Below, piece after piece: positions 2,262 to 8,685 of a DNA stretch of 39,131 nt. Under the pieces are notes generated by a model. That model was not told the origin of the DNA. It did not search any database and saw only the letters and a list, made by a program, of their open reading frames with translations. Numbering within the stretch: position 1 is the stretch's first letter; each line of letters opens with the position of its first letter. The stretch comes from Microcoleus sp. GA_180221_E-2-1-MAG-45_12 (GTDB lineage: Bacteria; Cyanobacteriota; Cyanobacteriia; Cyanobacteriales; JAAUUE01): positions 1,940-41,070 of the forward strand of contig JAIMKT010000033.1 in NCBI GenBank assembly GCA_020692245.1. Direction: 5' to 3'. The position numbers were made by a program, and so were the translations under genes.

Positions 2262-5200
2262 TTAATACACATCCCGCACATAACGTTTATCGGCAGCAAG
2301 CTTCTTGAGATAAGCCTTACTCTCTTCTGGAGTCAACTTCCCGTGGGTTTGAACAATATCCCCCAGAGCCTTGTCCACATCCTTTGCCATCCGACTCGCA
2401 TCCCCACAGACATAAAAATGCGCCCCCGCTTCCAGCCATGCCCAGAGTTCTGCCCCCTGCGCCCGCATCTGATCCTGAACATAGATTTTTTCTGGTTGAT
2501 CACGGGAAAAGGCTAGATCAAGGCGAGTCAAAAAGCCATCCTCATGCCATTGTTTGAGTTGATCCTGATAGTAAAAATCTGTCGATCGATGCTGTTCCCC
2601 AAAAAAGAGCCAGTTTTTGCCAGAGTCTCCTCTACCTTGACGTTCTTGGAGGAAAGCTCGGAAGGGGGCAATGCCTGTGCCGGGCCCAACCATAATCATT
2701 GGCGTATCAGGTTTAGCAGGGGGACGGAAATGGGCGGATTTCTGGACAAAAATGGGAACTTCTATATTTTGGGGACAATCGGCAAGGAAAGTAGAAGCAA
2801 CGCCTTTGCGGGGTTTTCCTTTGTAGGTATAACGGACTGCTGCCACGGTGAGATGAACTTCTTGGGGTGTGGCTTTGGGGCTGGAGGAGATGGAATATAA
2901 TCTTGGTTGCAGACGCTTGCATAGGCTGAGGAGTTCGCTGGCGGTGAGGTCGATCGAGTATTCCTGCAACAGATCTACAGATTGTTTTCCCCATAGCCAT
3001 TGATGAAGTTGGTCTTTGTGTTCCGGTTGGAGGAGGTGAGCTAATTCGGAGGATTGCGATCGATCGAGGACAAATTGCAGCAAGTTTTGGTTAATCCGGG
3101 CGATCTCAAAATGTTTTAGTAAGGCGAATTCTAAGGGAATTTCCCCTAATCCGTCTACATTGACTAGAGTTTCAGCAGATAATTTAGTAACCGAGAGTAA
3201 TTCAGTAACTAAATCTGGACAATTTTGCACCCAAACACCGAGAGCATCCCCGGCTTCGTAGGTAAAGTCAGTCTCGGCAATCGAGAATATAAATTGTCTA
3301 GTTTCCTTGAGGGAACCCGGTGCATTTAATAAAATATTGCCGACTAAAGGAGCTAAAAGGGGATTTTTCCTATCGAAGGTTTTGGTAGTTTTTGTGATTT
3401 TTGTTGATGGGGAGATTTGGGCAGAGATTTGGGCAGAGATTTGGAGAGGAGTTTGAGTTTGATTAGAGATGGCGGCGATCGCCATGGACTGTGAGGGAAT
3501 TTCTGCGATCGCTACGGATTGAGTAAAAATTTTAGTAGCTGCTCCTAATTCTTTTTCTTGAGCAAGATAATTTTTTACACCCTCTAACCAAGTCTGAGCA
3601 AGGGGTTGATAATCGGGTTCACAATCTACCCTTGGCAAAAACCGATACGCTCCCAAGGCTTCTAGGCGTTGATCTAGCCTACGTCCATGCCCACAAAATT
3701 GATCATAACTAGAATCCCCAAAGGCTAAAACACTGAAGGCTGTTTCCGGCAACCGGGGGGTGCTATCACCCTTAAGAGCTTCCCAAAAATTTGTGCCATT
3801 GTCAGGAGCATCGCCATCACCGAAGGTACTGCTAATTAACAATAAGGTGCGAATCTTGGGGAGATCAGCTATTGCATAGTCATCCATTGCTGCGATCTGT
3901 ACCTGATGCCCTGCCGCCCTTAAGGACTCTGCACAACACCCCGCAAACTCTTCTACGTTGCCAGTTTGGGAAGCCCATAATAACAATACTGGTGGTGTAT
4001 TTTCAGCTCCTTGAGGAATTGTGTTAGCGGTTGAGGGATTTTCTAGAGAAAGATTTCCTAAAGTAGAATTTTCTGGAGGAGCGACAGGAAAAACTCCCAA
4101 ACTCGATCCATAGCTCCGGGCAAATAACCCCGATAGCAGACCATCGATCCACAACCGTTTTGCTGGATCCAAGGGAGCGCTGGGGGGAAGAGTCGGCACA
4201 CCGCCAGTCTTTCGAGATTCTTCTAGACGTAAACCCGCACAATAGCCAGCTAAATAGAGTTTTTCATGGTCTTCTAGCACCATAGTTGGTGCAGCTTCCA
4301 GACCCAACAAGTTAGAGAAAGCATCAATTTGAGACATATCAAGTTTTGCAGAGGTAGAAGGAATAACTGGATTAATTGCGAAATTAGGTACAGAACTAGG
4401 TACGGAATTAACTACAGGTTCGATCACTGGCTTGATCGCTGTAATCGCTGCTTTAACAGGAGTTAGTTTCACGGCACAGAATTTGCACTCTGGCTGGAGA
4501 GATATGGGATCGATCGCATCACTGGTGACGGCATTGATGGCTAGGTCTTTGCCAAACACATCATTCCAATGGAACGGCACAAAACAATTGCCCGATCGCA
4601 CTCGGTCTGTAACTACGGCTGGCAATACCGCAAAACCCCGCCGGGAACGAATTTCTACAGGGTCTCGATCGCTAATCTGCAATAACTTGGCATCCTCTGG
4701 ATTAATCTCCACAAAGGGCCCCGGATTGAGTTTATTCAGGGTCGGCACTTTCCCCGTCTTCGTCAGGGTATGCCATTGGTGTTGCAATCTCCCAGTGTTG
4801 AGGATAAAGGGATAATCTCGATCGGGCATTTCAGTTTTCGGCAGGTGGGGACGGGGAAAAAATACGGCTTTGCCATTGTCAGTAGGAAATACAAGGCGGG
4901 GACGACTGCCACTGGGGTTTTCCTTCAGGGTTTGGCTGATCCCGTCATTCAAGTAGCGAATGGGATGGCGATTTTCCTGAGAAGCTACACCAACGGGAGC
5001 CGTATCTAAATCTTCTACTGGAGGACAGGGCCATTGCAGAGGAGTTTTGCGGAGACGTTCATAACTTGCACCCCGTAGGTCATAGCCTGTTTTCGGATTC
5101 CAAGCCTTTTTAATTTCTTCAAAAATTTCTGAAGCAGAATTGTAGGTAAATCCGTGAGCAAAGCCCATTTCACAGGCGACCCTAGCAATAATTTGCCAGT

Positions 5201-6647
5201 CGGGGAGCGCCGCACCGGGGGGATCGATAACTTTCTGCATGAGGGTGAGATTCCGCTCCGAATTGACCATCACTCCTTCGGCTTCTGCCCATAAAGCACC
5301 GGGTAGCAAAATATCAGCGTAGGCATTGGTTTCTGTACTTAAAAACGCATCTTGGACAATCACCAGTTCTGCTTTTTGGAGACCCTCGATCGCCCTTTGT
5401 CGATTAGGTATTGTTGCCACCGGATTGGTGCAGATGATCCAACATGCCTTGATTTTACCTGCTGCCATTTGGGAGAACAGATCGATCGTCCCTTGTCCCA
5501 GATTGGTTTTGATTGTTCCCGGAGGCAGTTGCCAGAGATTTTCCATAAAGGCTCGATCGGACTCCACCAACACCGATCGCTGTCCCGGTAATCCCGCCCC
5601 CATGTAACCCATCTCTCGCCCCCCCATGGCATTAGGCTGCCCCGTCAAGGAAAAGGGACCACTCCCCGGACGGCAGATGTTTCCTGTGGCTAAATGAAGA
5701 TTGCAAAGGGCATTAGTATTCCAAGTCCCGTGGGTGCTTTGATTCAGTCCCATTGTCCAGCAACTCATCCAAGCCTTTGCTTCCCCAATCCACTGGGCTG
5801 CTCGGTGAAGATCTGCTTCGGGGATTCCGGTAATTTCGGCAACTCGATCGGGGGAATAATCCGCCAAAAAATTCGGCATCACCTCCCAGCCTTCGGTAAA
5901 TTCGGTAATGAAGTCGGTATCTATAGATCCATTTTTCACAATCAAATACAGCAATCCATTCATCAGGGCAATATCAGTCCCCGGCTTAATCTGCATATAC
6001 AAACTTGCTTTGTCCGCAGTGGCAGTCCGGCGGGGATCCACTACAATTAATTTTGCTCCTGCCTTGACCCGATCCATCATGCGTAAAAACAAGATCGGAT
6101 GGCAATCAGCCATATTTGCGCCGATCACAAAAAATAAATCCGAACAATCCAGATCCTGATAGGAACCGGGAGGGCCGTCGGCGCCAAGGGAAAGTTTATA
6201 GCCACTGCCAGCACTCGCCATGCACAGCCGGGAGTTGGATTCAATATTATTTGTCCCCACAAAACCCTTTGCCAGCTTATTGGCAAGGTATTGCGCCTCC
6301 ATAGACATCTGCCCCGATACATAAAAGGCAATAGCATCAGCACCATCTTTGTCTAGAATCTGCCGTAATCCATCAGCCGTTTTTTTTATCGCTGCATCCA
6401 TAGCGATCTCCACAGGTTCACGGGTACGGTCTGATCGCATATACGCCGATTCCATTCTTCCCGATTCCCGTAAAGCCTTGGCACTGGTGCTACCTTTCGT
6501 GCAGAGACGACCAAAATTCGAGGGATGCGATCGATCGCCAGTAACTTTCACCACTTTCCCCTCGGCAACTTCCATCACCAGCCCACAGCCAACTCCACAA
6601 TAAGGGCAGACGGTCTTAATCGATGAATTGGGTAGAGCGCTCTGCAT
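2262..6647 (-). CDS. narB: Bifunctional fusion: NarB-type molybdopterin nitrate reductase + CysJ-like diflavin (FMN/FAD/NADPH) reductase
   Basis: Single 1461-aa ORF. N-terminal CPYCGVGC...LCTKG (4Fe-4S/Mo-bisPGD oxidoreductase), NarB-like core to ~residue 720. Then a CysJ-like helical segment ([10 protein letters not shown]...[14 protein letters not shown]), flavodoxin ([28 protein letters not shown]), FAD motif [13 protein letters not shown] motif [31 protein letters not shown], and terminal RYVRDVY. Confidence 0.96.
3413..3448 (-). repeat. 12-bp x3 tandem repeat encoding [11 protein letters not shown] in the interdomain linker of the fusion protein
   Basis: agatttgggcag|agatttgggcag|agatttggagag read directly on the + strand. 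Confidence 0.85.
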
Positions 6648-6778
6648 TTGATTTGCTTAAGTTGGGCGGATTTCTCTAAAAGTTATGCTTGGACTGCAAT
6701 CAGGTTGTGATTTCTCCAAACTGAAGGGGGTAAATTTTCACTTGCTGATTGTTACTTACAAGCTGCTTATAAGGTGTC

Positions 6779-6820
6779 AATGTACTGGTGTGATTCAGGG
6801 AATTCCGTAGTCTGTGTTAC
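6779..6820 (-). promoter_or_regulatory. NtcA-activated promoter for the narB fusion
   Basis: Minus strand reads GTA-ACACAGAC-TAC (6820..6807), then exactly 22 nt (GGAATTCCCTGAATCACACCAG), then TACATT (fits TAN3T; 6784..6779). This matches the consensus GTAN8TAC-N22-TAN3T, ~130 bp upstream of the ATG. Confidence 0.85.
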
Positions 6821-7040
6821 GAAGTATGTAGAGTTATGTAGTTTACGGATAGTCTTGATGCAATTAATCTCTAAGCTGACAGTAATTTTTATTGTGGAAA
6901 GATTGCTCGATCGAGGAAAGCTGAACTCCTTACAACTATTCCTGCCCCCGTTCTGCCCCACTTAAAAAGATGTTGGAGTTAAACAACAGGCTCAAACTAT
7001 TGTGATAAACTGCGACAAAATCATTTGTTCTTGTATACCG

Positions 7041-7988
7041 ATGGCAAATCTACCCCATTTCATTCAATATCAAGGCAGTAAAAGGAATCTGGCGAAGCAC
7101 CTGCTCCAGTTTTTTCCAAGAAATATTAACAGACTGGTAGAGCCTTTTGCAGGAACTGCTGCGATTAGTGTTGCTACTTCTAAAGATCAGATCACCCGCA
7201 GTTTTTGGTTGAATGACCTGAATAAACCGCTAATCGAGCTACTAGAACTAGCTATAGAAAGACCAGACAAGATAGCAGATTCCTACTTAGAACTATGGAA
7301 TGAACAACATACTAATTCTGTAGCCCACTATTTTGAAGTCAGGTCAAGATTCAATGAAATTAATGATCCAAAATTATTCCTTTATCTACTAGCAAGATGT
7401 GTTAAAGGTTCAGTTCGCTACAATTCTGAAGGGTTGTTCAACCAAAGTCCAGACAAAAGGCGTAAAGGTACACGACCTGAGACAATGAGAAAAAATATAG
7501 CAGGTGTATCTAGTCTACTAAAAGGCAAATGTAGGTTTACGAGTTTGGATTATCGAGAAGTATTAGAGCAAATTCAAGAGGGCGACTTCATCTACATGGA
7601 TCCTCCCTACCAAGGTGTGTGCGGCAATAGAGACTCAAGATATCTGTCTGGAATAGATTTTGATGATTTTGTATTAGCCCTTGAGCAGTTAAATCAAACA
7701 GGAGCCGTTTTTGCTATTAGCTATGATGGCAAGTTGGGCAATAAAACTTTTGGCAAGGTTCTTCCTAATAGTCTAAATCTTGAAAGGATCGAAATCGAAG
7801 TCGGCAGATCTTCGCAGTCTACATTACTTGGTAAGGAAGAAACCACGATCGAATCATTGTACTTGTCACCAAATTTATCCAGAAACCTAGCGACTAATCA
7901 AGCCAGCAATATTAGCTATATCCTCAGGAAATCAAAACAACTAAACTTTTTGAAAAAAAATGGAGAATTTGCCGCAGCTACCAGATGA
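7041..7988 (+). CDS. D12-class (Dam-like) N6-adenine DNA methyltransferase
   Basis: QYQGSKRNLAKHLLQFFP, VEPFAGTAAISVA (SAM motif), YMDPPYQG (DPPY catalytic motif). ORF is listed from 7002; ATG at 7041 (MANLPHFIQYQGSK) is the likely start. Confidence 0.92.
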   Translation: MANLPHFIQYQGSKRNLAKHLLQFFPRNINRLVEPFAGTAAISVATSKDQITRSFWLNDLNKPLIELLELAIERPDKIADSYLELWNEQHTNSVAHYFEVRSRFNEINDPKLFLYLLARCVKGSVRYNSEGLFNQSPDKRRKGTRPETMRKNIAGVSSLLKGKCRFTSLDYREVLEQIQEGDFIYMDPPYQGVCGNRDSRYLSGIDFDDFVLALEQLNQTGAVFAISYDGKLGNKTFGKVLPNSLNLERIEIEVGRSSQSTLLGKEETTIESLYLSPNLSRNLATNQASNISYILRKSKQLNFLKKNGEFAAATR

Positions 7989-8685
7989 CTTCTTAGAGTT
8001 TTGCCGCTCCATAACAGCAAAGAGACCGAAGGCAGTTATTGATCACATCCTGCAACACGGATTTATTACGACTGAAGAGTTGAAAGAAACCTACGGTTAT
8101 AACCATCCTCCAAGGGCGGCTAGAGATGTTAGAGAAAATGGTATTCCGTTAGAGACTTTTCGTGTTACTGGGAGTGACGGCAGGAAAATAGCTGCCTATC
8201 GGTTTGGAGATATTAGTAAGGCAAGATTCACTCGTCTTTCTGGGCGAACAGGTTTATCCAAGCAGATTAAAGAAGCCCTAATCAGCAGGTATGGATGTAA
8301 GTGTTTTATTTATCTTGAAGAGGTAGATGAACGCGAGTTACAAATAGATCATCGTGTTCCTTTTGAAGTTGATGGCGAGCCAGACCTAGCCCCAGAAAAT
8401 TTTATGTTACTTTGTGGCTCTGCTAACCGAGCTAAATCGTGGTCATGTGAACATTGCGAAAACTGGAATAGCATTAAGGATAAGTCGATTTGTCTATCCT
8501 GTTACTGGGCATATCCAGAAAGCTATGAACATATCGCAATGCGGCAAGCTAGAAGAATAGATTTGCTTTGGGAAGACAATGATATTGAAATTTATGAAAG
8601 GCTCAAGCAAAGGGCTGTTAGCGTAGAAAAGAAACTGCCTGAATTTGTTAAAGATATTATTGAGCGCGAGATCGGCATGTCATAG
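7960..8685 (+). CDS. HNH endonuclease, probable type II restriction enzyme partner of the upstream methyltransferase
   Basis: LQIDHRVPFEVDGEPDLAPENFMLLCGSANRAKS (HNH) plus a Cys cluster CEHCENWNSIKDKSICLSC. Overlaps the methyltransferase by 29 bp in another frame. Confidence 0.85.
   Translation: MENLPQLPDDFLEFCRSITAKRPKAVIDHILQHGFITTEELKETYGYNHPPRAARDVRENGIPLETFRVTGSDGRKIAAYRFGDISKARFTRLSGRTGLSKQIKEALISRYGCKCFIYLEEVDERELQIDHRVPFEVDGEPDLAPENFMLLCGSANRAKSWSCEHCENWNSIKDKSICLSCYWAYPESYEHIAMRQARRIDLLWEDNDIEIYERLKQRAVSVEKKLPEFVKDIIEREIGMS

What the first reader, a model, noticed from the sequence alone, without database searches (positions are those of the whole stretch)
6779..6820. Textbook NtcA-activated promoter driving the narB fusion
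The minus strand reads GTAACACAGACTAC, then exactly 22 nt, then TACATT. Each element fits GTAN8TAC-N22-TAN3T and points toward the fusion gene ~130 bp away. The + strand direction, toward the methyltransferase, lacks the -10 box at the right spacing. This places the NADPH-type nitrate reductase under global nitrogen control and supports an assimilatory rather than sulfur-related role.
Basis: partly seen in the sequence, partly recalled or inferred. Interest (0 to 1): 0.7.

Follow-up and report, generated by a model that had tools for sequence, protein, structure and literature searches.

The report
NtcA promoter on an NADPH-type nitrate reductase
This cyanobacterium seems to have swapped its usual ferredoxin-driven nitrate reductase for a self-contained NADPH-type one, and the replacement gene carries a conserved binding site and promoter box that would switch it on through NtcA, the cell's general nitrogen regulator.

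Summary
On the minus strand, GTAACACAGACTAC (6820-6807), a 22-nt spacer and TACATT (6784-6779) point at a 1,461-aa nitrate reductase/CysJ-type fusion (ATG at 6647). The strict pattern alone is weak: 27 matches in the 4.2-Mb genome against 17 for the reversed control. Other evidence makes it convincing. The only other fusion-bearing genome with upstream DNA available (Geminocystis sp.) has GTAGCACAGACTAC-N22-TAAGTT at the same place: 13/14 identity in the site, 9/22 in the spacer, 41% at fourfold-degenerate codon sites. The genome encodes NtcA; its strict matches include glnA and an Sll0783-family gene; its nirA promoter has the same layout; and a third cyanobacterium has the identical 14-mer with N22-TAATAT before urtA. 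Neither this genome nor Geminocystis has a conventional narB, so the fusion is probably the only assimilatory nitrate reductase. A separate ferredoxin sulfite reductase argues against a sulfur role. The enzyme is of a known kind (NasN, shown in Mycobacterium smegmatis) and NtcA class II promoters are textbook. Less ordinary is this enzyme in cyanobacteria (3 of 391 genomes of the order). Binding, transcript and activity data do not exist.

The parts
6807..6820 (-). Predicted NtcA-binding site GTAACACAGACTAC (GTAN8TAC)
   Evidence: Read directly; 13/14 identical (GTAGCACAGACTAC) upstream of the Geminocystis fusion
6785..6806 (-). 22-nt spacer, not conserved in sequence (9/22) but conserved in length
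6779..6784 (-). Predicted -10 box TACATT (TAN3T); TAAGTT in Geminocystis at the same spacing
6772..6772 (-). Predicted transcription start (+1), site centre at -41.5 (inferred)
   Evidence: Geometry of canonical NtcA class II promoters (PMC3898017)
6643..6664 (-). Second conserved block CAACTTAAGCAAATCAA-ATGCA across the start codon, identical in Geminocystis; contains an in-frame TAA 12 nt before the ATG; role unknown
2262..6647 (-). 1,461-aa fusion: Fe4S4/molybdopterin nitrate reductase (NarB/NasA-like) + flavodoxin + FAD/NAD(P)-binding reductase (CysJ-like); NasN-type
   Evidence: Pfam and NCBIfam

Best explanation
The element is a canonical class II NtcA-activated promoter for the fusion gene. 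When nitrogen is scarce, 2-oxoglutarate-bound NtcA binds GTAACACAGACTAC centred near -41.5, in place of a -35 box, and recruits RNA polymerase to TACATT so that transcription starts near 6772. The fusion is a NasN-type, probably NADPH-dependent assimilatory nitrate reductase that stands in for the missing ferredoxin-dependent NarB and feeds nitrite to NirA. Shown here: motif, spacing, conservation, NtcA gene, missing narB, co-occurring nirA-nrtABCD and sir. Inferred: binding, activation, start site, electron donor and substrate.
For: Site, spacing and -10 box verified. Geminocystis: GTAGCACAGACTAC-N22-TAAGTT, 13/14 in the site against 9/22 in the spacer and 40/80 upstream; fourfold-degenerate sites 41% identical, so neutral sequence is close to randomised. 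In Geminocystis the upstream gene is co-directional, which leaves the fusion as the target there. ntcA present, 382 bits against a 245 cut-off. Strict matches in the same genome include glnA (TIGR00653, 661 bits) and an Sll0783-family nitrogen starvation gene (TIGR04044, 286 bits). nirA promoters: GTATATCTAAACAC-N22-TATCTT here, GTATATCTCAACAC-N22-TATCTT in G023, GTATTAAAAGTTAC-N22-TAATCT in G132. The identical 14-mer with N22-TAATAT precedes urtA (TIGR03407, 616 bits) in G087; urtA, nirA and glnA are listed as canonical NtcA promoters (PMC3898017). No other narB in G000 or G132; nirA-nrtABCD without narB; separate ferredoxin sulfite reductase. Homologue beside nirB-nirD in Paraburkholderia; M. 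smegmatis homologue MSMEG_4206/NasN is the sole assimilatory nitrate reductase (PMC7816997).
Against: The strict pattern alone is only 27 vs 17 over control genome-wide. The N8 core is more conserved (7/8) than NtcA binding alone requires. Only one independent relative has upstream sequence; the same-genus contig (L154) ends inside the gene. A consensus TTGACA overlaps the -10 box and a conserved CTTATNA lies further downstream, so another start cannot be excluded. No expression data.
Confidence: 0.87

Rival explanations
1. The site is real but is bound by another regulator that recognises the longer conserved stretch TTCGTARCACAGACTAC, and NtcA is not involved.
For: The N8 core is conserved 7/8 between the two genera, more than a GTAN8TAC reader needs.
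Against: Layout is exactly that of NtcA promoters, with the -10 at N22 conserved; the identical 14-mer sits before urtA, a classic NtcA gene, with different flanks; no regulator gene is evident beside the fusion in either genome.
Confidence: 0.07
2. The match is coincidental; the gene is driven by an ordinary sigma-70 promoter using the TTGACA that overlaps the proposed -10 box, or the CTTATNA box downstream.
For: TTGACA at 6780-6775 is a perfect -35 hexamer; 27 strict matches occur genome-wide against 17 in the reversed control.
Against: No sigma-70 pair passes the scan there; TTGACA reads TTGGTA in Geminocystis; site conservation is far above the near-neutral yardstick.
Confidence: 0.05
3. 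The 14-mer is a repeat or transposon end that landed in both promoters.
For: GTAACACAGACTAC recurs several times in genomes of another family (f32).
Against: Those copies belong to a different repeat with the flank agggctggggtggg and no N22 -10 box; only G000, G132 and the urtA promoter of G087 have the promoter layout.
Confidence: 0.01

Closest known systems
Canonical NtcA-activated class II promoters (nirA, glnA, urtA, ntcB; PMC3898017)
   Same: GTAN8TAC, 22-nt spacer, TAN3T; e.g. Anabaena nirA GTAGCTACTTATAC-N22-TAACCT
   Different: Sits on a nitrate reductase of patchy distribution, outside the nir operon; binding untested
NasN / MSMEG_4206 ('bifunctional nitrate reductase/sulfite reductase flavoprotein subunit alpha')
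   Same: Molybdopterin nitrate reductase fused to flavodoxin and CysJ-like FAD/NADPH domains; nitrogen-controlled (GlnR regulon) sole assimilatory nitrate reductase in M. smegmatis (PMC7816997)
   Different: Here in a cyanobacterium, under a predicted NtcA rather than GlnR promoter, paired with ferredoxin NirA rather than NirBD
Cyanobacterial NarB
   Same: Catalytic half about 43-45% identical; same expected reaction
   Different: NarB is ferredoxin-dependent, lacks the flavoprotein half and usually lies in the nirA-nrt operon; absent here

Membership tests
NtcA-activated class II promoter | GTAN8TAC site | tested here: met
NtcA-activated class II promoter | -10 box TAN3T about 22 nt downstream (site centred near -41.5) | tested here: met
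   definition from PMC3898017
NtcA-activated class II promoter | ntcA gene in the genome | tested here: met
   (382 bits)
NtcA-activated class II promoter | Conserved in orthologous promoters | tested here: met
   One independent genus available
NtcA-activated class II promoter | NtcA binding, start site at +1, ammonium repression | not testable with these tools
   Needs EMSA/ChIP, start mapping, expression data
NasN-type nitrate reductase | Fe4S4 + molybdopterin + dinucleotide-binding + flavodoxin + FAD + NAD(P) domains in one chain | tested here: met
NasN-type nitrate reductase | NADPH-dependent nitrate reduction | not testable with these tools
   Inferred from domains and from M. smegmatis NasN (PMC7816997)
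Sulfite reductase flavoprotein (CysJ) | Passes the CysJ equivalog cut-off; pairs with CysI | tested here: not met
   587.7 bits against 668.15; the genome has ferredoxin-type Sir (1037.7 bits against 731.5; CysI below cut-off)

The most novel reading that the evidence does not exclude
Two separate cyanobacterial families have replaced ferredoxin-dependent NarB by an acquired NADPH-type NasN, uncoupling nitrate reduction from photosynthetic ferredoxin while nitrite reduction stays ferredoxin-dependent, and the newcomer was drawn into the NtcA regulon.
Probability: 0.65. Interest if true: 0.5.

Novelty: new member of a known kind. Interest (0 to 1): 0.4.

Why it matters
Cyanobacterial nitrate reduction is the standard example of a ferredoxin-linked, light-coupled step. 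A natural replacement that should draw on NADPH, yet sits under the same global nitrogen regulator, would let one test whether the ferredoxin link matters (for example for nitrate use in the dark), and shows how a rare gene is wired into an existing regulon.

Tried and rejected
Strict motif counts as stand-alone proof: rejected, 27 vs 17 control. Repeat/transposon origin of the 14-mer: tested with GTARCACAGACTAC in 245 genomes; the multi-copy cases are an unrelated repeat. Inheritance of the promoter from ancestral narB: only one of 27 conventional narB genes has the canonical layout within 400 nt upstream and none has the 14-mer, which is expected if most lie inside operons, so this is uninformative. 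Same-genus footprint: the contig is cut inside the gene. Donor of the fusion: in a FastTree the two cyanobacterial proteins group together (0.93), but their place relative to the other fusions is not resolved (0.51). The 2020 JBC paper on NasN is not held.

Full report
Observation. The minus strand reads GTAACACAGACTAC (6820-6807), 22 nt, TACATT (6784-6779), with the fusion's ATG at 6647. The + strand has TTACGG at the equivalent distance and a TAN3T only at N18, so the layout points to the fusion, not to the methyltransferase. With the site centred at -41.5 the start would be 6772.

Chance. In shuffled copies of the 354-nt intergenic region the strict pattern appears in 0.14% (N20-24: 0.5%). 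Across the 4.2-Mb genome it occurs 27 times, and 17 times when read backwards as a control. The motif by itself is therefore only a modest pointer.

Footprint. Of 391 genomes of the order, only three have the fusion: this one, a same-genus genome (86-88% identity, contig cut inside the gene) and G132, whose 9,512-base contig matches the length and gene content of the Geminocystis sp. GBBB08 contig (L001). A scan of 85,462 species genomes returned no further cyanobacterium among its 80 best loci. In Geminocystis the gene is preceded by GTAGCACAGACTAC, exactly 22 nt, TAAGTT. The site is 13/14 identical, the spacer 9/22, the 80 nt upstream 40/80. Fourfold-degenerate codon sites are 41% identical while the proteins are 81% identical, so unconstrained sequence is nearly randomised. 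At the local non-coding background of 49%, 13 of 14 has a binomial probability of 0.00075, before counting the conserved -10 box and spacing. In Geminocystis the upstream neighbour is co-directional, which leaves the fusion as the target. A second block, CAACTTAAGCAAATCAA directly before the ATG, is also identical; its role is unknown.

Is it NtcA? The genome encodes NtcA (382 bits, cut-off 245), about 3 kb from nirA-nrtA-nrtB-nrtC-nrtD. Ten of the 27 strict matches lie outside frames of 100 codons or more. Their downstream genes include glnA (661 bits) and an Sll0783-family nitrogen starvation gene (286 bits), plus, less certainly, an agmatinase-like protein just under its cut-off and a polar amino-acid binding protein. 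Its nirA promoter has GTATATCTAAACAC-N22-TATCTT, which fits the GTN10AC core seen by ChIP (PMC3898017). The same-genus nirA has GTATATCTCAACAC-N22-TATCTT and G132 nirA has GTATTAAAAGTTAC-N22-TAATCT. Searching GTARCACAGACTAC in 245 genomes, only three hits have the N22 -10 box: the two fusions and urtA (616 bits) in another family's genome. urtA, nirA and glnA are named as canonical NtcA promoters.

Role of the gene. Domains are Fe4S4, molybdopterin, molybdopterin-dinucleotide binding, flavodoxin, FAD-binding and NAD(P)-binding. No other close NarB relative exists in this genome (95% complete) or in G132 (99%), whereas most other genomes of the order carry a conventional narB, about 43-45% identical in the best matches listed. 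The nir operon here runs nirA-nrtABCD with no narB after it. Sulfite reduction is covered by a ferredoxin-type Sir, and the protein falls below the CysJ cut-off. A Paraburkholderia homologue sits directly after nirB and nirD and is annotated as bifunctional nitrate reductase/sulfite reductase flavoprotein. The M. smegmatis protein of the same design, MSMEG_4206 or NasN, is the sole assimilatory nitrate reductase, is in the GlnR regulon, and is reported to use NADPH (PMC7816997). Assimilatory use is thus well supported and a sulfur role is not.

Verdict. The promoter is a good prediction of an ordinary type. The more interesting point is the swap of a ferredoxin enzyme for an NADPH-type one in two cyanobacterial families, with nitrogen control kept or re-acquired. 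How the gene came in is unresolved: the patchy distribution suggests transfer, while the tree does not settle the donor. What is shown are sequence facts; binding, activation, start site and electron donor are inferred.

Noticed in passing
6643-6664: CAACTTAAGCAAATCAA-ATGCA at the fusion's start codon is identical in Geminocystis although the rest of the leader is not; may be a translation-level element.
   Followed up: partly
7002-8685: A Dam-family (D12) adenine methyltransferase overlapped by a weak HNH-nuclease gene, between the fusion and thrS; looks like a compact restriction-modification pair. Absent upstream of the Geminocystis fusion.
   Followed up: partly
L106, L107 (own genome contigs C113, C120): Strict NtcA-type promoter patterns upstream of an agmatinase-family gene and an amino-acid ABC binding protein; plausible further NtcA targets.
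   Followed up: no
L167-L169, L181-L185: Family f32 genomes carry a repeat, agggctggggtggGGTAACACAGACTAC(G), in up to five copies per genome.
   Followed up: no
L152:4502-5962 (own genome C121): A NirA/CobG-family protein passing the precorrin-3B synthase cut-off.
   Followed up: no
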